A stretch of 64,000 nt of DNA from Luteibacter sp. Sphag1AF (GTDB lineage Bacteria; Pseudomonadota; Gammaproteobacteria; Xanthomonadales; Rhodanobacteraceae). Made by a program: the position numbers and the translations under genes. Positions 368-10,893 of this stretch are shown here, piece by piece; position 1 is the first letter of the stretch; the number at the start of each line of letters is the position of its first letter. The stretch lies in contig NZ_JACHYH010000001.1 of NCBI RefSeq assembly GCF_014192715.1, positions 1,240,001 through 1,304,000 of the forward strand, written 5' to 3'. Below the pieces are notes generated by a model that was not told the origin of the DNA, searched no databases, and saw nothing but the letters and a program-made list of their open reading frames with translations.

Positions 368-1983
368 ACTTCCGTCGTGGCTCCCATGGTTTCCATCTTT
401 TCGTCCAGAGACTTGATGCTCTTCCGAGGCCCGCGAAGCAGCAGCGCGCCAGCCGCGCATACCAGCATGATGACCCCCGCCATCAGGAACACATCGCTAT
501 AGGCCTGAAGTAATGCCTGCTTGTGAATCACCTGCTGTATCTGCCCCAGCGCCCGCTGCCGCAATGTCGCAAAGGCAGCGCCCTGAAGCGCATCGTCAGG
601 TGCCACCGCATGCCCTGCGAAGCGACTGACCAGTGCAACGATGCGATCCCGATATGCTTCCGCAAACGGCGTCACGTGCTCGCCAATACGCATGGCGTGG
701 AACTTCTCGCGCTCCACCACCCACTGACTGGCAATGGCGATGCCGATGGCGCCACCCACGTTTCGTACCATGGAGAACACGCCGGATGCCGAGCCGAGGT
801 CCGACTTGCTCATGCCCTCGATGGACATCACACCCAGCGCCACCACGATCAGCGACTGGCCAATGCCACGCACGATCAACGACGGCACGATTGTGTTCTG
901 CGCTGATTCCTGGCTGAGATGCATGTTCATAAGACAACCCACCGCCATGATGGAAAAGCCCAGCACGATGGCGATGCGTGGACTGGTCCGCCGCATGAGC
1001 GGCGGCGTGGCGAACGACATGATGAATTGCACGACGCCGTAGGGAATCATCACCACGCCGATATCCCTCGCGTTGAAGCCCTGCACATCGGCGAAGTAGT
1101 TCGGCACGAGAAACACCACGCCAAACACCACGGCCCCGAACAGGAACTGCATGAGGCTGGCCAGACCGAAGTTGTAGCTGCCCAGCAGGCGCAGATTGAT
1201 GAAAGGTTCCTTGCGGCGCAACTCGATCCACACAAACGCCACAAGCCCCAGTGCCGCCGCCATGGCTGCCGACACGATGAAGGAAGATGAAAGCCAGTCC
1301 TTGCGTCCGCCTTCTTCCAGCATGATCTGCAACGCCGACAAACCCAGCGCCATCGCCGCGATGCCACCCCAGTCGCCATGCTTCAGACGCGCCAGTTCCA
1401 GCGGCTTTGCGCGGATGGACCAGCCGATGGCCGCCAGCAACGCGAGACCCGGCGGAATCTGCAGGTAGAAGATGTACCGCCACGAATACATGTCGGTGAG
1501 CCAGCCGCCCAGCGACGGGCCAGCCGCCTGAGCCACGTTGTTGGACACCGCAAAGAGCGCCATGCCCAGCGCGTGCTTTGATCGGGGCAACTCCGTGACG
1601 ATCAGCTGGAACGACAGCGGAATCAGCACGCCGCCAAAGGCACCCTGCAAGGTACGCGCGAAAATCATCGTGCCGATGTTGGGCGCAACCGAACACAGGA
1701 TGGAGAAGACGACAAAGCCCAATGTTCCCGTCATCAATACGCGGCGCATCGAAAATACGCTGGCCAGCCACGCTGACAACGGAATGACGATGATTTCAGC
1801 CACAAGATAGGCCGTGCTGATCCACGATCCTTCTTCGAATGTGGCACCCAGCGAACCGCGGATGTCCGGCAGCGACGCGTTGGTCACGTGGACATTCATG
1901 CCTGCCATGAAACAGCCCACTGCCCCGCCAATGACCGCGACCCAGGTTCGCAGCGAGACGGTGTCTTCGCTGGACGCGCTCAT
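361..1983 (-). CDS. MFS drug transporter, DHA2 (EmrB/QacA) family
   Basis: This 540-residue inner-membrane protein has the 14-helix layout expected of DHA2 proton/drug antiporters. Near the N-terminus it carries 'GMNVHVTNASLPDI' followed by 'GSWISTAYLVAE', the usual first-helix and motif-A region of EmrB-like proteins. The start ATG (1983-1981) overlaps the TGA of the upstream HlyD-type gene as ATGA, which indicates translational coupling. With that adaptor and the NodT-type outer-membrane lipoprotein it should form a tripartite pump across both membranes. The substrate is unknown. The AraC regulator transcribed divergently from the operon is the likely local regulator. Confidence 0.9.
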   Translation of the reverse strand: MSASSEDTVSLRTWVAVIGGAVGCFMAGMNVHVTNASLPDIRGSLGATFEEGSWISTAYLVAEIIVIPLSAWLASVFSMRRVLMTGTLGFVVFSILCSVAPNIGTMIFARTLQGAFGGVLIPLSFQLIVTELPRSKHALGMALFAVSNNVAQAAGPSLGGWLTDMYSWRYIFYLQIPPGLALLAAIGWSIRAKPLELARLKHGDWGGIAAMALGLSALQIMLEEGGRKDWLSSSFIVSAAMAAALGLVAFVWIELRRKEPFINLRLLGSYNFGLASLMQFLFGAVVFGVVFLVPNYFADVQGFNARDIGVVMIPYGVVQFIMSFATPPLMRRTSPRIAIVLGFSIMAVGCLMNMHLSQESAQNTIVPSLIVRGIGQSLIVVALGVMSIEGMSKSDLGSASGVFSMVRNVGGAIGIAIASQWVVEREKFHAMRIGEHVTPFAEAYRDRIVALVSRFAGHAVAPDDALQGAAFATLRQRALGQIQQVIHKQALLQAYSDVFLMAGVIMLVCAAGALLLRGPRKSIKSLDEKMETMGATTEVA

Positions 1984-3092
1984 CGTGAATGTGTGTCGAT
2001 GGTAGTGACCACGGACATGCCCGGACGCAACAGCGCTGCGCTGTCGCCATCCAGCGCGATGCGCAGCGGCATGCGCTGTACCACCTTGGTGAAGTTGCCC
2101 GTAGCGTTGTCCGGCGGCAGCAGCGCGAACTCCGCGCCGGAGGCCGGTGCGAAGCTTTCCACATGGCCGTGCACCACACGCCCGCCCAACGCATCCACTT
2201 CCACATCTACCGGCTGTCCGCGCTGTACGCGGCCGAGCTGGGTCTCCTTGAAGTTCGCCACCACATACGTCTGTCGCGGCACGATGGCCAGCAATGGCGT
2301 GCCCACGGCCACATATTGACCAGCGCGGAGGCTGCGCTGCCCGACCATGCCAGCAGCGGGTGCACGGATCTCGGTGTGTGCAAGGTCGAGGCTGGCCAGA
2401 TCAAAGGATGCCTGCGCCTTGGCCAGCTCCGCGTGCGCCCCATCCAGTGCCGCCTGTGCACGAACACGATCCGTACGCAGCGAGGTCAGAGCCTGCCGTG
2501 CCGCCGAAAGGCGTGCGCGCGCGGCAGCGGTCGCGGACGCGCTCATGGCGGCATCCGCCTGCGCGGCTTCCCATTGTTGCTCGCTGGCGATCTGTTCGCG
2601 TCGCAGCGACTTCTGCCGATCCATCTCCAGCGACGCCTTGCGCGCCGCTGCCTCACGCGCTTCCAGCTCGGCTTCAGCGGCGGCAATCTGGCTCGTCTGC
2701 TCGGCGGCCTGCGCATCCAGATGGGTGATGGCGGCCTCCCGACCTGCGATATCTGCTTTGGCTGCGGCCACGTTGCTGGTTGCGAACGCCACGTGAGCGG
2801 CGTAGTCGCGGTCGTCGATGTGTGCCAGCACATCACCGGCCTTCACTTCCTGGTTGTCCTGCACCAGCACGGTAGCGACGTAGCCGGATACACGCGGACT
2901 CACACTCACAATATCGGCTCGCACGTATGCGTCGTCCGTGCTCTCGTGATAGCGCGCGACGATCCACCAGTACATCAGCGCGGCAACAAGGACCACGACG
3001 CCCGCCGCCATCGCGAGCACGGCCAGCGGCTTTCTGCGCGCCCAGGAGCCGGCTTCGCCGACGATCACGTGAGGAGCATTTCGGTTGATCAT
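1980..3092 (-). CDS. HlyD/EmrA-family periplasmic adaptor (membrane fusion protein)
   Basis: This 370-residue protein has a short cytoplasmic N-terminus, one membrane anchor at about residues 23-43, a beta-barrel/lipoyl segment with 'ESTDDAYVRADIVSVSPRV' and 'VQDNQEVKAGDVLAHID', a long alanine-rich coiled coil (about 95-210), and a second lipoyl half ending in 'GRVVHGHVESFAP'. This is the EmrA pattern. It links the MFS pump to the outer-membrane channel. The start has an AGGAA ribosome site in good position. It lies 14 bases downstream of the NodT-type gene and overlaps the MFS gene by 4 bases. Confidence 0.9.
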   Translation of the reverse strand: MINRNAPHVIVGEAGSWARRKPLAVLAMAAGVVVLVAALMYWWIVARYHESTDDAYVRADIVSVSPRVSGYVATVLVQDNQEVKAGDVLAHIDDRDYAAHVAFATSNVAAAKADIAGREAAITHLDAQAAEQTSQIAAAEAELEAREAAARKASLEMDRQKSLRREQIASEQQWEAAQADAAMSASATAAARARLSAARQALTSLRTDRVRAQAALDGAHAELAKAQASFDLASLDLAHTEIRAPAAGMVGQRSLRAGQYVAVGTPLLAIVPRQTYVVANFKETQLGRVQRGQPVDVEVDALGGRVVHGHVESFAPASGAEFALLPPDNATGNFTKVVQRMPLRIALDGDSAALLRPGMSVVTTIDTHSR

Positions 3093-3106
3093 GGATATTC
3101 CTGGAA

Positions 3107-4561
3107 TCAGTGTGATGTGCCGGATAGGAGGATCGACGCTGTGGTGTCGGCGCGTTGCCAGCCCCCACCCAGCGCGCGAAACAGACCCACCTGCGCAACG
3201 GCGACATCCGCATGGGAGGCAGAAACGGCCTGGCGCGCCGCCACGTCACTGCGTTCGGCATCCAGCAGGTCGATGGCGGTGGATGCACCGAGCGAATGGC
3301 CGATTTGTGCCAGTCGCAGCGCTTCGCTGGCCTGGTCGCTTGCACGTTGCAGCGCTGCGTAGTGCTGCTGTGCGGCGGCGTAGCTCGTCAGCGCCATACG
3401 GACGTCTGCGATGGCGTGCAGGATGGTCTTGTCGAACAACGCCAGCGTCGCCTGCTGGTCGGCGTGTGCACCCGCAATACGCGCACGCGCCACGCTGAGA
3501 TTCGGAAAGCTCCACGACAACAGCGGACCCACGCGCCAGACAGTCGACGAACGCTGATCCAGTCCACCGATAGTCGGCGCTGAACTCAACAAACCTGCGC
3601 CAAGCGATATCGACGGATACAACTGCGACGTGGCGACATCAATGCCCGCCGTGCTGACCTTCAGTCGCTCGTCCGCCGCACGCACGTCGGGACGACGGCG
3701 CAGCAAGCCGGCGATGTCCCCGGTGGGCAGGGGGGAAGTGAGACGGGGAACGGCGTGACAGGACGTCACATCGTCCGGGAGCGTCGTCGCCGACGTGCCC
3801 ATCAGCAATGCCAGCTCGTAGATCGCGTTGTCGTGAGCGGCCTGAAGCGGCGGAATCGCGGCGGCCGCTTCCTCGGCCAGCGCCTGTGTTCGCACCACGT
3901 CCAGCTGATTGCCCGCGCCGATGGCCCGCATCTTTGCGTGCAGCGCCGCGCTTCGGCTCAACAAATCCAGGGATCGCTGCGCGTCGGTGGCACGCACGGC
4001 AAACGCACAGATGTCGATGTAGGCACGCGCGGCTTCCGCCGCCACGTCGATACGCACACCATCGGCGTGCGCCTGCGTTTCTGCCGCGCTGGCGCGCGCC
4101 GCGCGGATGGTCGCGCTCTGGCGGCCCTGGATGTCGGTATCCCATGCGAAGTCCAGACCCGCGTCGTAACGCATGCCGGTGCGAATCGGCGTGTCGTTGA
4201 GCGCGGCACCCACCTGATCGGCCAGGGTGCTCCCGTAGCCTGCACCTGCCGTCACACTCGTGCTGGGCAGCCGTGCACGGCGACTTTCGTCGATCACACT
4301 GCGCGCTTGCGCGACGCGTGCGGCAGCCACCCGGATATCAAGGTTGTCGCGCAGCGCATCGTCCACCACGCGGACCAGGACCGGGTCGTCGTACAACGTC
4401 CACCAGGCGTCGACCGGGGCGTCGGAAGACACGCCGTTCAACGGCTTCACCAGTACATTGCCGCTCTCCGGCGTGCGGGCAGAAACACTGACACTGCCTG
4501 TCCGCGCACAGGCACCGAGCAGAAGCAGCAACAGGGGGAACGCGATGTATCGGCGCACCAT
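3107..4561 (-). CDS. NodT-family outer-membrane efflux lipoprotein
   Basis: This is a 484-residue TolC-like channel with a lipoprotein signal peptide: a hydrophobic core followed by the lipobox LLGAC, giving Cys at about residue 18. Two TolC-type repeats are visible, each with long alanine-rich helices and conserved segments such as 'LDFAWDTDIQGRQ' and 'RRRPDVRAADERL'. It is the first gene of the operon and supplies the outer-membrane exit for the pump encoded by the two downstream genes. A 21-bp inverted repeat (4574-4594) lies just upstream of the start and overlaps the leader. Confidence 0.9.
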   Translation of the reverse strand: MVRRYIAFPLLLLLLGACARTGSVSVSARTPESGNVLVKPLNGVSSDAPVDAWWTLYDDPVLVRVVDDALRDNLDIRVAAARVAQARSVIDESRRARLPSTSVTAGAGYGSTLADQVGAALNDTPIRTGMRYDAGLDFAWDTDIQGRQSATIRAARASAAETQAHADGVRIDVAAEAARAYIDICAFAVRATDAQRSLDLLSRSAALHAKMRAIGAGNQLDVVRTQALAEEAAAAIPPLQAAHDNAIYELALLMGTSATTLPDDVTSCHAVPRLTSPLPTGDIAGLLRRRPDVRAADERLKVSTAGIDVATSQLYPSISLGAGLLSSAPTIGGLDQRSSTVWRVGPLLSWSFPNLSVARARIAGAHADQQATLALFDKTILHAIADVRMALTSYAAAQQHYAALQRASDQASEALRLAQIGHSLGASTAIDLLDAERSDVAARQAVSASHADVAVAQVGLFRALGGGWQRADTTASILLSGTSH

Positions 4562-4648: not shown

Positions 4649-5437
4649 ATGGACAATCCGCGCACTCTCGAAGCCTGCGAAGCCTGTGATCGCCCCGTAG
4701 CGGCACTTGCCGACGACTATGCGCACGGCGCAGAGGTTTCGCCTCACAGTCATCGGCGTGCGCAGCTCATTCACAGCGTGACTGGCGCAATGACTGTCAC
4801 CTCGACAGGCGGTCGCTGGGTGGTGCCTGCCGGCAAGGCGGTCTGGATGCCCGCAGGCATGTCGCATCAGATACGCATGGCGGGTGATGTGCGCATGCGC
4901 ACCGTGTTTGTACGCGACGATGCGCGCGAGGGCCTGCCGAAGATCTGCGAGGTCATCGGTGTGTCGGCGCTGTTGCGGGAAGCCATCCTCGCGGCGATGG
5001 ATATTCCGCTGAACTATGCCCGCGAAGGCCGCGACAGCCGTGTCATGGAATTGATCCTGGATGAACTGGAGCAGGCCCCACGCCTGTCCATGCACGTGGC
5101 GTTTCCCAAAGATCCGCGCCTGATGGCGGTATGCCAGCACCTTCTCACCCGGCCAGCTCACGCACCCTCGCTGGATGAACTGGCGGCACGCATCCACGTC
5201 AGCGGCCGCACACTCTCGCGACTGTTCGAGCGCGAACTCGGCATGACGGTCAGCGCATGGCGGCGGCGCATGTGCATTCTGCTGAGTCTTCCACGACTCG
5301 CCGAAGGTGCGTCACTTGCTGAGGTCGCCATGGAATTTGGCTATGACAGCCCAAGTGCCTTCACCGCCATGTTCAAGCGGGAGCTGGGCATGGCGCCCAC
5401 GATGTACGTGGCGAGCAGGGATTCCCTGCACCGCTGA
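4649..5437 (+). CDS. AraC-family transcriptional regulator with cupin sensor domain
   Basis: This 262-residue protein has an N-terminal cupin fold (about 25-110, with 'SPHSHRRAQLIH' and 'VVPAGKAVWMPAGMSHQI') and a C-terminal AraC DNA-binding domain (about 160-258). The second helix-turn-helix shows the family signature 'LAEVAMEFGYDSPSAFTAMFKRELGMAPTMY'-like spacing: FGYDSPSAF, then F-R-G--P. Cupin-type AraC proteins next to efflux operons commonly respond to small aromatic or drug-like molecules. Being divergent from the NodT-EmrA-EmrB operon, it is probably that operon's regulator. Confidence 0.88.
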   Translation: MDNPRTLEACEACDRPVAALADDYAHGAEVSPHSHRRAQLIHSVTGAMTVTSTGGRWVVPAGKAVWMPAGMSHQIRMAGDVRMRTVFVRDDAREGLPKICEVIGVSALLREAILAAMDIPLNYAREGRDSRVMELILDELEQAPRLSMHVAFPKDPRLMAVCQHLLTRPAHAPSLDELAARIHVSGRTLSRLFERELGMTVSAWRRRMCILLSLPRLAEGASLAEVAMEFGYDSPSAFTAMFKRELGMAPTMYVASRDSLHR

Positions 5438-7304: not shown

Positions 7305-7412
7305 ATGTTGGACACGATCAGACTGCTCGAAGCCATCGGTAGCGATGCGTCGCCCTGTCGCGCGTCGGCGATCAACATGTTCGTCCAGCACGGCGCCCAA
7401 GTTACGTTCTGA
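7305..7412 (+). pseudogene. Decayed borosin-type precursor peptide
   Basis: The frame starts with ATG behind AGGGGGAA and encodes MLDTIRLLEAIGSDAS, matching the two intact precursors (8447, 8810) at 15 of the first 21 residues. It then diverges and stops after 35 codons. Directly past the stop, in the +1 frame, the sequence resumes as DVARSPPS, resembling AVAHGDPS of the 8810 precursor. Comparing the two, a net loss of about 11 bases after the A-Q codons explains the frameshift. The core region is lost. The alternative is a real 35-residue peptide, but it would lack most of the helical leader that the methyltransferase should bind. Confidence 0.65.
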
Positions 7413-7525
7413 CGTTGCACGGTCACCGCCATCAGTTACCGGAAGTAACTGCCTCGAACGCTCACAAGAATGCAGGCGCTGCAACATCCCGCAGCGCCAC
7501 ACCCCTACATACAGACTGACCATTC

Positions 7526-8362
7526 ATGACCACGCCCCTTATTCCGCCGTCCACCAAACCGTCCCGCGGCAGCATTGCCTGCGTGGGGATGGGCATGACG
7601 CTCGGCTCGCATCTGACGCCGCTGTCGCGCAGCCATATCGAGCAGGCTGACGTCGTGTTCGCGGGACTCTCCGACGGCATCGTCGAAATCTGGCTCAAGC
7701 GCATGAACGATGATGTGCGCAGCCTTCAGCCCTATTACAAGGAAGGCAAGTCGCGCCTGCAGACGTATCGTCAGTGGGTTGACCTGATGATGGACGAGGT
7801 TCGTGCAGGCAAGCGCGTGTGTGGCGTGTTCTACGGCCATCCGGGCATCTTCGCCTGGTCGCCGCACAAGGTCATCGAAGTGGCGCGTGCCGAAGGCTTT
7901 GATGCGCACATGGAGCCGGGCGTCTCGGCAGAAGACTGCCTCTATGCGGATCTGGGCATCGACCCGGGCCGCTTTGGTTGCCAGCATTTCGAAGCCAGCC
8001 AGTTGCTGCTGTTTGAACGCCGCATCGACCCCACCGGCTATCTGGTGCTGTGGCAGGTGGGTCTTGTGGGCGACCAGTCGCTCGCGCGCTTCCAGACCGG
8101 CTCGGCGTATCGCCAGGTGCTGGTGGATCTGCTCGCAGAGGACTATCCGCTGGATCACGAGATCATCGTGTATCGCGCGGCCACGCTGCCCATCGAGAAA
8201 CCGCGCGTGATCCGCGTGGCGCTTCGCGATCTGCCGGAAGTGAAGATGACGGCAGAAGAGACCGTCGTCGTTCCGCCGGTATCCACGCCGAAGCCGAACC
8301 TGGCCATCCGCGCGCGACTGGATGCACTGGACAAGCAACACGCACAGGGCGAAATCGCCTGA
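7526..8362 (+). CDS. Split-borosin-type peptide backbone alpha-N-methyltransferase (tetrapyrrole methylase fold)
   Basis: This 278-residue SAM-dependent methyltransferase has the tetrapyrrole-methylase (class III) fold. The N-terminal glycine loop is CVGMGM (19-24); GHPGIFA is at 104-110 and EPGVSAEDCLYADLGIDP at 130-147. The last two blocks, together with 'LSRSHIEQADVVF' and the 'YPLDHEIIVY' strand, are what I recall for SonM of Shewanella oneidensis, which N-methylates the backbone of a separate precursor (SonA). Tyr71, Arg77 and Tyr81 lie where borosin enzymes carry catalytic Tyr/Arg residues. The gene stands between a decayed precursor and two intact ones. No cobalamin, siroheme or diphthamide genes are nearby, which argues against a tetrapyrrole or diphthine role. 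Confidence 0.85.
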   Translation: MTTPLIPPSTKPSRGSIACVGMGMTLGSHLTPLSRSHIEQADVVFAGLSDGIVEIWLKRMNDDVRSLQPYYKEGKSRLQTYRQWVDLMMDEVRAGKRVCGVFYGHPGIFAWSPHKVIEVARAEGFDAHMEPGVSAEDCLYADLGIDPGRFGCQHFEASQLLLFERRIDPTGYLVLWQVGLVGDQSLARFQTGSAYRQVLVDLLAEDYPLDHEIIVYRAATLPIEKPRVIRVALRDLPEVKMTAEETVVVPPVSTPKPNLAIRARLDALDKQHAQGEIA

Positions 8363-8376
8363 TCGACTTTCATCAA

Positions 8377-8398
8377 GCCGATGCCGGTCGGCATCGGC
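8377..8398 (+). promoter_or_regulatory. Intercistronic hairpin between methyltransferase and precursor gene
   Basis: Perfect 9-bp arms GCCGATGCC (8377-8385) and GGCATCGGC (8390-8398) enclose a GGTC tetraloop. No T-tract follows, so it is not a standard terminator. It could partly terminate transcription or stabilise the downstream precursor message, letting the cell make more peptide than enzyme. That role is inference. Confidence 0.5.
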
Positions 8399-8446
8399 AT
8401 GCGTCACCCGCAAGCTACGTGACCATCTAAGGACCAGGAGAAGCAC

Positions 8447-8665
8447 ATGCCAGACACGATCGAGTTGCTTGAGGCCATCGGCCGCGATGCATCGCTACGC
8501 CACGCATCACCCGCCGCACTGAGCATCCTGCTGGACGAGGCCCACGCCTCGGGCACCCTTACCAGGGCCGTGGCTTCCGGCGACACTTCGGAACTGGCAC
8601 GGGAATTCAGGGCATCGGACACCTTTGTGCCACAGAGCATTCAAACGTTCTTCATCGAGTTCTGA
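8447..8665 (+). CDS. Borosin-type precursor peptide A
   Basis: This is a 72-residue peptide. The N-terminal two thirds (DTIELLEAIGRDASLRHAS, then helices through A-V-A-S-G-D-T-S-E-L) form a small helical domain like the binding domain of SonA-type split-borosin precursors, which also shows an 'LGQDAQL' start and a 'V-x-x-G-D-x-x-x-L' end. The C-terminal tail FVPQSIQTFFIEF (60-72) is hydrophobic and rich in beta-branched residues, which suits backbone N-methylation, so it is the likely core. The ribosome site is AGGAG with good spacing. The gene lies 84 bases after the methyltransferase. No protease or exporter is adjacent. Confidence 0.8.
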   Translation: MPDTIELLEAIGRDASLRHASPAALSILLDEAHASGTLTRAVASGDTSELAREFRASDTFVPQSIQTFFIEF

Positions 8666-8809
8666 TTTCAACGGCGAGTCGCAACACGCACTATCAAGAA
8701 CTGGCGTCGCTGGCCGTCACCCTGCTCTGCCGGGCTGATGGCCTTATTGCCAAAAGTTTTTCAGGCACGTCAGGCAATCGCATGACGATTACAGGAACAG
8801 GGGAAACAC

Positions 8810-9106
8810 ATGACAGACACGATTGATTTGCTGGAAGCCATCGGCCGTGACGCATCGCTGCGTCACGCATCTGTGGACGATCTGACCGCGGCACTCACCA
8901 ACGCACAGGCCTCCGAAGCACTCACCGCTGCCGTCGCTCACGGTGATCCGTCGCTGCTGTGCGCCGAGTTGGGTCACAAGCCGATGGTCGTTCCGCAGAT
9001 CTCGCAGTCTCCGGGTCACGAGGAAGAAGAGCGTCAGCCGGACGAAGAGAACGATTCGACTGAATCGCCGGCTCCCGACAAACTTGCTTCTTCGCGCGTC
9101 CACTAA
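8810..9106 (+). CDS. Borosin-type precursor peptide B with acidic tail
   Basis: This 98-residue paralogue aligns with precursor A without gaps for the first 66 residues (about 38 identical), including LLEAIGRDASLRHAS and a shared VPQ at 61-63. After VPQ it reads ISQSPGH and continues into a strongly acidic tail (about 70-83, mostly Glu and Asp) and a polar end. Precursor A stops nine residues after VPQ, so the two peptides differ sharply in the region expected to be modified. The ribosome site is AGGGGAA. The start codon and context match precursor A closely, pointing to a local gene duplication. Confidence 0.78.
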   Translation: MTDTIDLLEAIGRDASLRHASVDDLTAALTNAQASEALTAAVAHGDPSLLCAELGHKPMVVPQISQSPGHEEEERQPDEENDSTESPAPDKLASSRVH

Positions 9107-9117
9107 ACCGCACCCGC

Positions 9118-10893
9118 ATGCGCCGGCTGCCGGGCCGATTCAAAGCACTGTCCGCTCTGGCGGGCATGGCTCTGTGCGTGCTCGTGCAGACCGGTCATGC
9201 AACGACACCTGTGGTTGATGCGGCGGCCACGCTCAACGAAGCGGAAAGCATCCGCACCAAAGATCATCCACGCTTCGTGCGCCTGCTGGAACAGGTTCAG
9301 GCACACGCGGACGAACTCGCACCCAGCGTCCAGTGGCATCTTCGCTACCTGACCGCGTGGGAAGTGATGTTCAGTGGCGACTATCCGAAGTCGGAAACAC
9401 AGCTGCATGAAGTGATCGAGCGCTCGGGCGATCCCGTGCTCGTCGCCAAGGCATCGGCCCTGCTGCTTACCAACCTGGGTGCCAACCGCCGCTACGAGGA
9501 AGCGTACGCGCTGGCCAATCGCCTGACTTCCGGGTTGCCCGATGTAAAGGACCCCGTCGCCCGTTCCATGCTGCTGATGAACCTGTCGCAGATGCTGGAC
9601 CTGGCGGGCCAGACCGATTTGTCCATCCAGTACTCACACATGCTGGAGAACGCGCTTGCCCCCGGCGAAACACTTTGCCATCCGCATTCGCTCCAGGTGG
9701 CCGCGCTTTACAACGGCAGGCGACTGAACTCCAGCAGCGCGGAAATTCAGCGCGCCATTGATACCTGCGTCGCCGGCAACCAGCCGGTGCTGGCCAACAC
9801 GAACTGGCTGGTGCTGGACAGCCTGTATATCGCGGAAAAAAAGCCCGCCAAGGCCCTGGCATTGCTAGATCGCATCGCTCCGAGCATCCGCACCAACCAG
9901 TATTTCCCGCACCTTTTATCGCTGTACTTGCAGCGCGCGCAGAGCCTCGCGCAGCTGGGTGACGACGAAGGCGCACGGAAAGCAGCGCTTGAAGTGGTAA
10001 GCATGAGTAGCGCTGTCGAGATCAGCGAATGGCTGAAAGAAGCGTACGAAGTGCTGTACGGCATCGAGAAGCGACGTGGTAACGCGGACGCCGCGCTGGC
10101 GTACTACGAAAAATATCTTGCCCAGGACAAGGGCTATCTCAACGACGTGAGCGCACGCGCGCTCGCGTACGAAGTGGCACAGCAACACATGCTGGTGCAG
10201 AAGTTCGAGACCGAGCGACTCAACAAGCAGAACAACATCCTGCGACTGCAACAGGCACTGGACACCAAGGCTGTGGAAACAAGCCGGCTGTACATTGCGC
10301 TGCTGCTGGTGATCCTCGCGTCCATCGTCGTACTGCTGTTCCGCCTGAAGCGCTCGCAGATGCGCTTCAGGGAACTGTCGTGCCGCGACGGGCTCACGGG
10401 CATCCACAACCACCAGCACTTCATGAGTGAAGCCGAACGCCTGCTGCGCGCGAAGGAAAAGAAGGGCGGCATGGCCTGCCTCGTTTCTATCGACCTGGAC
10501 CATTTCAAGCAGGTGAACGACACCTACGGACATGCGGTAGGCGATGCCGTGCTGCGACGTACCGTGTCGGCCTGCCAGACCCATCTGCGCAGTACCGACC
10601 TGTTCGGACGTCTCGGCGGTGAAGAGTTCGGCATCCTGCTTATTGGTTGCTCACGCGAGGAAGGCGTGGCCATTGCCGACCGCATCCGCATGGCCATCGC
10701 AGCCACGCCTGTGGAGGAAGACGGTCATGTGGTGTCGTTCTCGGCCAGCGTGGGCCTGGCCTGCACAGGCGCTTCCGGTTACCAGTTGCAGAAGCTTTGC
10801 CGCGACGCCGATGCGGCGCTTTATCGCGCCAAGCGCACGGGCCGCAATCGCGTGATCGCCGACAACGATACCAACCGGTTGATTGTGGCCTGA
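9118..10893 (+). CDS. Membrane TPR-GGDEF diguanylate cyclase
   Basis: This 591-residue protein has a signal peptide ending near GHA (about 28), a periplasmic alpha-helical TPR-like region (about 30-370), a transmembrane helix (about 388-408, LYIALLLVILASIVVLLF) and a C-terminal GGDEF domain. The active-site motif is GGEEF, with RSTD ten residues before it at the spacing of the product-inhibition I-site (RxxD). It should make cyclic di-GMP in the cytoplasm in response to a periplasmic signal. It starts 11 bases after precursor B on the same strand and may be read through from the borosin locus. The ATG at 9118 lacks a clear ribosome site but gives a complete signal peptide. Confidence 0.9.
   Translation: MRRLPGRFKALSALAGMALCVLVQTGHATTPVVDAAATLNEAESIRTKDHPRFVRLLEQVQAHADELAPSVQWHLRYLTAWEVMFSGDYPKSETQLHEVIERSGDPVLVAKASALLLTNLGANRRYEEAYALANRLTSGLPDVKDPVARSMLLMNLSQMLDLAGQTDLSIQYSHMLENALAPGETLCHPHSLQVAALYNGRRLNSSSAEIQRAIDTCVAGNQPVLANTNWLVLDSLYIAEKKPAKALALLDRIAPSIRTNQYFPHLLSLYLQRAQSLAQLGDDEGARKAALEVVSMSSAVEISEWLKEAYEVLYGIEKRRGNADAALAYYEKYLAQDKGYLNDVSARALAYEVAQQHMLVQKFETERLNKQNNILRLQQALDTKAVETSRLYIALLLVILASIVVLLFRLKRSQMRFRELSCRDGLTGIHNHQHFMSEAERLLRAKEKKGGMACLVSIDLDHFKQVNDTYGHAVGDAVLRRTVSACQTHLRSTDLFGRLGGEEFGILLIGCSREEGVAIADRIRMAIAATPVEEDGHVVSFSASVGLACTGASGYQLQKLCRDADAALYRAKRTGRNRVIADNDTNRLIVA

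What the first reader, a model, noticed from the sequence alone, without database searches (positions are those of the whole stretch)
7305..9106. Split-borosin RiPP locus: peptide backbone N-methyltransferase with separate precursor paralogues
A stand-alone tetrapyrrole-methylase-fold enzyme with GHPGIFA and EPGVSAEDCLYADLGIDP blocks is flanked by small paralogous genes. Their products share a helical DTI-LLEAIGRDASLRHAS leader and a V-A-x-G-D-x-S-x-L end, like the binding domain of SonA in Shewanella. This is the layout of split borosins, in which the enzyme methylates backbone amides of a separate peptide. Split borosins are known in only a few characterised cases; this one has multiple precursors with different C-termini and no obvious protease or exporter, so its product would be new.
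Basis: partly seen in the sequence, partly recalled or inferred. Interest (0 to 1): 0.9.

Follow-up and report, generated by a model that had tools for sequence, protein, structure and literature searches.

The report
Methylated-peptide genes beside a diguanylate cyclase
A soil bacterium carries an enzyme and small partner peptides of the backbone-methylated 'split borosin' type, and in related bacteria the peptide gene usually sits directly in front of a membrane sensor that makes a bacterial second messenger, which suggests that the peptide is a signal rather than an antibiotic.

Summary
The enzyme (7526-8362) is a SonM/OphMA-family peptide backbone N-methyltransferase: E=3e-76 to SonM, 1e-4 at best to a cobalamin enzyme, key active-site residues kept. 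The 72- and 98-residue peptides have SonA-type borosin-binding leaders; a 35-residue vestige lies at 7305. Methylation is untested. The locus is common: 162 of 233 family genomes have the enzyme.

Such a sensor lies near 90 of 104 methyltransferases, including SonM-like Shewanella ones. Four genes fuse sensor, GGDEF and methyltransferase. At 17 sensor-cyclases with no methyltransferase in the stretch fetched, 11 still have the peptide gene directly upstream. Two loci carry the sensor on histidine kinases. The core tracks the sensor better than the enzyme.

Best reading: a split borosin whose modified peptide regulates its adjacent TPR sensor, hence c-di-GMP. The enzyme-peptide pair is a known kind, and a GGDEF-bearing borosin architecture is already in print. 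The ligand-receptor reading is inference.

The parts
7305..7412 (+). vestigial precursor, 35 aa, leader start only
   Evidence: precursor profile matches 22 residues, E=0.0057
7526..8362 (+). SonM-type peptide backbone N-methyltransferase, 278 aa
   Evidence: PDB 7ltc E=3.3e-76; key residues kept
8447..8665 (+). precursor 1, 72 aa, no acidic tail
   Evidence: precursor profile E=1.2e-22
8615..8662 (+). putative core region of precursor 1 (residues 57-72, SDTFVPQSIQTFFIEF)
   Evidence: position after the SonA-like leader; inference
8810..9106 (+). precursor 2, 98 aa, with acidic tail
   Evidence: precursor profile E=9.2e-37; helical to residue 54 in the predicted model
8978..9016 (+). putative core region of precursor 2 (residues 57-69, KPMVVPQISQSPG)
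   Evidence: position and comparison with relatives; inference
9118..10893 (+). TPR-sensor diguanylate cyclase, 591 aa: signal-peptide-like 8-28, TPR region, membrane helix 390-408, GGDEF about 421-591 with GGEEF
   Evidence: near 90 of 104 methyltransferases

Best explanation
A split-borosin signalling operon. The SonM-type enzyme docks the helical leader of the small precursors and methylates backbone amides in their C-terminal cores. The resulting N-methylated peptide, or the methylated precursor itself, is the ligand or regulatory partner of the TPR sensor encoded 11 bp downstream; binding alters the cytoplasmic GGDEF domain and so c-di-GMP. Shown by sequence: family membership of enzyme and leader, conserved gene order, fusions, precursor-sensor pairs kept where no methyltransferase is adjacent, sensor swap to histidine kinases, co-occurrence across genomes. 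Inferred: the methylation here, release by a protease encoded elsewhere, passage across the membrane (perhaps eased by N-methylation), binding, and the sign of the effect.
For: SonM match 3.3e-76 and residues; SonA as best profile hits. Sensor near 90 of 104 methyltransferases. Four sensor-GGDEF-methyltransferase fusions. 11 of 17 sensor-cyclases without a methyltransferase in the fetched stretch have a precursor directly upstream. Median gap precursor to sensor 12 bp in 84 pairs. TPR sensor on hybrid histidine kinases in L144 and L145 with precursors in front. 69 of 69 sensor-positive family genomes are enzyme-positive, 0 of 20 listed negatives are. Core tracks sensor.
Against: 14 of 104 methyltransferases lack the sensor and 13 of 121 sensors lack a recognised precursor. 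Precursors show no signal peptide and the TPR part is predicted periplasmic, so how they meet is unexplained. No protease or exporter is conserved. The covariation test does not control for shared ancestry. No wet evidence.
Confidence: 0.6

Rival explanations
1. An ordinary split-borosin natural-product cluster: the peptide acts outside the cell, and the cyclase only couples its production to c-di-GMP.
For: The only mature borosins named in the texts seen are fungal bioactive peptides. GGEEF in 98 of 100 such cyclases fits an active enzyme of any role.
Against: No conserved exporter or protease; precursor-sensor pairs exist without an adjacent methyltransferase; sensor kept on histidine kinases.
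Confidence: 0.2
2. An intracellular regulatory module: methyltransferase and precursor form a complex that regulates the cyclase from the cytoplasmic side, for example reporting S-adenosylmethionine supply, with no secreted peptide.
For: Fusions place the methyltransferase next to GGDEF, C-terminal to it; precursors lack a signal peptide.
Against: Core distance tracks the sensor more than GGDEF or the enzyme; kinase-borne sensors keep the precursor.
Confidence: 0.15
3. A tetrapyrrole, cobalamin or diphthine methylase with unrelated small ORFs beside it.
For: Shared fold family TP_methylase; weak NCBIfam matches far below their cut-offs.
Against: SonM and OphMA matches are better by more than 40 orders of magnitude; precursors co-occur.
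Confidence: 0.01

Closest known systems
Type IV split borosin SonM-SonA of Shewanella oneidensis (PMC8429565; parts 1-4 of 10 and passages read)
   Same: Separate methyltransferase of similar size, BBD-type leader in register, key active-site residues kept; 48% identity to SonM. SonM-like loci L068 and L069 also carry the TPR-GGDEF gene.
   Different: Two intact precursors plus a vestige; acidic tail after the core of precursor 2; different core sequences; the SonM positions 68, 173, 178 and 234 differ. Whether MR-1 itself has the cyclase was not checked.
Borosin architectures with a GGDEF domain (PMC11395268, Fig. 1 legend, passage seen)
   Same: GGDEF linked to a borosin methyltransferase, as in the fusions L127, L129, L132, L133.
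   Different: The legend only names the domain; in the window the genes are separate. The original papers were not held.
RcbAB of Vibrio vulnificus (PMC12282931, abstract and passages read)
   Same: TPR-GGDEF cyclase encoded with a partner that controls it; the TPR part represses the cyclase.
   Different: The partner is a TPR protein, not a RiPP precursor; no methyltransferase mentioned in the passages seen.
Peptide signal and receptor pairs of Gram-positive bacteria (recalled)
   Same: Small peptide gene next to its receptor; TPR or histidine-kinase receptors.
   Different: Here Gram-negative, backbone N-methylation expected, mostly cyclase output; binding not shown.

Membership tests
Split (type IV-like) borosin | Stand-alone methyltransferase of the SonM/OphMA family, without fused core or clasp | tested here: met
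   278 aa, PDB matches
Split (type IV-like) borosin | Active-site residues of SonM | tested here: met
   Y58, R67, Y71, Y93, F99, E146, W166, Q167 identical; R68, E173, Q178, I234 differ, which the paper describes as clamp or nearby residues or a cofactor-pocket residue
Split (type IV-like) borosin | Separate precursor encoded beside the enzyme with a borosin-binding domain | tested here: met
   profile finds SonA first, E=0.0011; fold search ranks SonA first but no E below 1
Split (type IV-like) borosin | Backbone N-methylation of the core | not testable with these tools
   needs co-expression and mass spectrometry
Diguanylate cyclase | GGDEF domain with intact active-site motif | tested here: met
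   Pfam GGDEF 2.6e-41; GGEEF
Peptide-receptor signalling pair | Conserved adjacency of peptide and sensor genes | tested here: met
Peptide-receptor signalling pair | Peptide and sensor covary | tested here: inconclusive
   partial correlation 0.25-0.32, ancestry not controlled
Peptide-receptor signalling pair | Peptide binds the receptor and changes its output | not testable with these tools
   needs binding and c-di-GMP assays

The most novel reading that the evidence does not exclude
Split borosins of this kind are N-methylated peptide signals: each precursor is paired with its own TPR-sensor receptor (diguanylate cyclase or histidine kinase), and one methyltransferase can serve several precursor-receptor pairs in trans. 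This would be a ribosomal, backbone-methylated peptide signalling system feeding c-di-GMP in Gram-negative bacteria.
Probability: 0.45. Interest if true: 0.85.

Novelty: new member of a known kind. Interest (0 to 1): 0.58.

Why it matters
In the passages I saw, no function is given for bacterial split borosins; the paper most likely to address it (Lee 2024) was not held. A conserved, sometimes fused or kinase-swapped sensor next to the precursor makes a specific function testable in tractable laboratory strains. If right, it would also explain why no exporter or protease gene accompanies these genes and why a protease-resistant, possibly membrane-permeable peptide would be useful.

Tried and rejected
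Tetrapyrrole or diphthine methylase: rejected. The 35-residue ORF at 7305 as a working precursor: treated as a vestige. Efflux genes 3-7 kb upstream as an exporter for the peptide: their clusters occur in at most 4 of 70 loci. Other neighbours as partners: apart from enzyme (69 loci), GGDEF cluster (67) and precursor (42), no cluster occurs in more than 16 of 70 loci. PDB search with the 72-mer alone: nothing up to E=1. VIA-align second look: switched off.

Prior art: borosin with diguanylate cyclase, 0 papers; RiPP, diguanylate cyclase, methyltransferase and precursor peptide, 0; TPR-GGDEF, 0; borosin with GGDEF, 1, PMC11395268; further. The library lacks most subscription papers, so this is no proof of absence.

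Errors of mine: the fourth protein was read from 7306, one base out of frame, so those rows say nothing about the vestige; one search gives the right frame. One search stopped on a parsing error and was redone.

Full report
Observation. The enzyme is 7526-8362, 278 residues. Two intact small paralogues follow, 8447-8665 (72 aa) and 8810-9106 (98 aa). A 35-residue ORF at 7305-7412 carries only the first part of the leader. In the window's own genome (G000, 4.18 Mb) one enzyme match and three precursor matches exist, all at this locus. G109 in the family search has the coordinates of L032, Luteibacter jiangsuensis, and is listed as same genus as the window, so the source is most likely a Luteibacter (inference).

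What the enzyme is. Among PDB sequences the best match is SonM (E=3.3e-76, residues 15-266), then OphMA relatives (about 1e-50); cobalamin methylases reach only 1e-4. Pfam gives TP_methylase (1.8e-20); NCBIfam gives only matches far below cut-off. Residues that PMC8429565 (parts 1-4 of 10) ties to the core peptide, the cofactor or the active-site locks are identical here: SonM Y58, R67, Y71, Y93, F99, E146, W166, Q167. In an alignment of 80 sequences (SonM included) the first seven of these are the same in every row that has a residue there. SonM R68, E173, Q178 and I234 are replaced by L, D, R and E; 73 of 80 rows have R at 178 and 76 have D at 173. Identity to SonM is 48% (122 of 255 columns).

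What the peptides are. The 72-mer alone finds no PDB sequence up to E=1. A profile of 71 related precursors (L053:7461-7889 and L058:6836-7135 of the 73 unique ones were left out) has seven SonA sequences as its best PDB matches, E=0.0011 to 0.0042, in register over the leader. The predicted model of the 98-mer (mean pLDDT 69.9, pTM 0.42) is helical to residue 54, with no helix or strand after it. Foldseek puts SonA chains at ranks 1, 2 and 4, but the best E is 2.3, so fold evidence is supporting only. SonA is described as a five-helix borosin-binding domain 1-53, a linker 54-61 and a core 62-71. After residue 56 the 98-mer reads KPMVVPQISQSPG plus an acidic tail, the 72-mer SDTFVPQSIQTFFIEF without a tail. 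Related cores fall into groups: PQ(I/S)xQxPGHEE plus acidic tail; hydrophobic FYSIQMP- or CCLMLP-like plus acidic tail, with repeated cores in L042, L051 and L058; and short ones such as TNSTI-A-YD without a tail.

Distribution. At the thresholds used, 162 of 233 family genomes, 204 of 398 order genomes and 10 of 369 class genomes (own genome included) have the enzyme. The locus is common in this family.

What was missed. Gene 9118-10893 starts 11 bp after the 98-mer and encodes a signal-peptide-like segment, a TPR region, a membrane helix at 390-408 and a GGDEF domain with GGEEF. The window's genome has 19 matches to it, but the other 18 cover only residues from about 385 on, so the sensor part is unique there. 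In 70 loci, 67 have a member of its cluster; that cluster was joined by single linkage and takes in some other GGDEF genes, and the next most frequent cluster other than enzyme and precursor is in 16 loci. With profiles for enzyme, precursor, sensor part and GGDEF, 113 enzyme matches were found. I left out 9: one duplicate (L112), and eight within 2.5 kb of an end of the held sequence, of which five have the sensor and three do not. Of the remaining 104, 90 have the sensor on the same strand within 4.5 kb and 92 a GGDEF domain: 64 of 65 sensors in the named loci plus window, 26 of 39 in the wider order and class set. The 14 without it are in L047, L123, L131, L138, L140, L142 (two enzymes), L143 and L146-L151; L131, L138 and L140 have a GGDEF gene without a sensor match. 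Only 3 GGDEF matches lie outside that zone in these loci (1.28 Mb in all, zone included). Enzymes 76% identical to SonM in Shewanella and Parashewanella (L068, L069) have a SonA-like peptide and the sensor-cyclase. Four genes are sensor-GGDEF-methyltransferase fusions (L127, L129, L132, L133). Of 100 sensor-cyclases, 98 have GGEEF, one GGDEF, one (L069) neither; 69 have an RxxD at the inhibitory-site position.

Peptide and sensor are the tighter pair. I fetched 20 sensor-cyclases at places where one search listed no methyltransferase. Three turned out to have one; of the other 17, 11 have a precursor directly upstream and 6 do not. In 84 precursor-sensor pairs the median distance from precursor stop to first matched sensor base is 12 bp (range -7 to 224). 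Of 121 distinct sensors, 86 have an upstream precursor by the first profile. A second profile, made from SonA and nine peptides that I had picked by eye, adds 11, of which nine are its own seeds and two (L137, L141) are independent. Eleven more have a recognisable short ORF judged by eye, and 13 have none. In L144 and L145 the TPR part sits on hybrid histidine kinases with a precursor in front (L145 by profile; L144 by eye). Two cysteines of the sensor are invariant in 67 relatives and present in at least 90% of 54 diverse sensors, which fits a periplasmic disulfide (inference).

Co-occurrence. Of 107 family genomes searched with the sensor, 69 are positive and all 69 are enzyme-positive; the 20 negatives that the tool listed are all enzyme-negative, and 18 further negatives were not listed and not compared. 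At class level 6 of 369 are sensor-positive at 1e-15, of which 5 are enzyme-positive; in one of these, G777, sensor and enzyme lie on different contigs, and the sixth genome, G677, is a weak match (8.7e-19). At E below 1e-60, 4 of 4 are enzyme-positive (Fisher p=2.8e-7; 0.0004 without the window's own family). The tool scored at most five candidates per genome, so sensors may have been missed.

Covariation. In 80 of the 84 pairs (four with precursors under 80 residues dropped), core distance correlates with sensor distance after removing GGDEF and leader distances (r=0.32, 0 of 500 permutations), less with GGDEF (0.09, 6 of 500). In 66 sets with exactly one methyltransferase: sensor 0.25 (0 of 500), GGDEF 0.14 (3), methyltransferase 0.00 (243). 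In the 50 nearest the window: 0.27 (0), 0.13 (15), 0.13 (32). Suggestive only; shared ancestry is not controlled.

Mechanism. Most likely the enzyme methylates the cores, using the leader as dock, and the product regulates the TPR sensor and so c-di-GMP. A precedent for TPR control of a cyclase is RcbB of Vibrio vulnificus, whose TPR part represses GGDEF while a partner from the same operon relieves it (PMC12282931, abstract and passages). How the peptide is released and meets a periplasmic domain is open.

Known or new. The enzyme-precursor pair is a new member of the split borosins: the sequence features tested are met, methylation is untested. The legend of Fig. 1 of PMC11395268 names a GGDEF domain among borosin architectures, so part of the link is in print. 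Imani 2022 (PMC9019853) and Lee 2024 (PMC11221551) are not held; Cho 2022 was not looked up. A search for borosin with diguanylate cyclase found nothing in the held library. The ligand-receptor reading may be new, or already proposed in papers that I could not read.

Noticed in passing
L058:6836-7135, L042:6950-7213, L051:7045-7308: Precursors with repeated hydrophobic cores (for example FVALMPP-FSAALMPA-FSVALMAP in L058; CCMMLPA-VCCMMLPG in L051), seen.
   Followed up: no
L142:3829-5448 and 1241-3829: Two methyltransferase domains in one 545-residue frame, followed by a TIR-TPR protein instead of the sensor-cyclase.
   Followed up: no
G200:C10:35319-46501: Five sensor matches in tandem within about 11 kb in one genome, as in a lineage-specific expansion.
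   Followed up: no
L131:6042-7610, L140:6047-7594: A flavin amine oxidoreductase gene lies between a GGDEF gene and the SonA-like precursor and methyltransferase in two related loci.
   Followed up: no
window 1980-4561 (-) and 4649-5437 (+): Efflux-type genes (outer membrane efflux protein by Pfam; the membrane-fusion look of 1980-3092 is by eye) beside an AraC-type regulator; not conserved with the borosin genes.
   Followed up: partly
L047:5962-6813: A Luteibacter methyltransferase with neither precursor nor sensor in the 12 kb held; it may act in trans.
   Followed up: no
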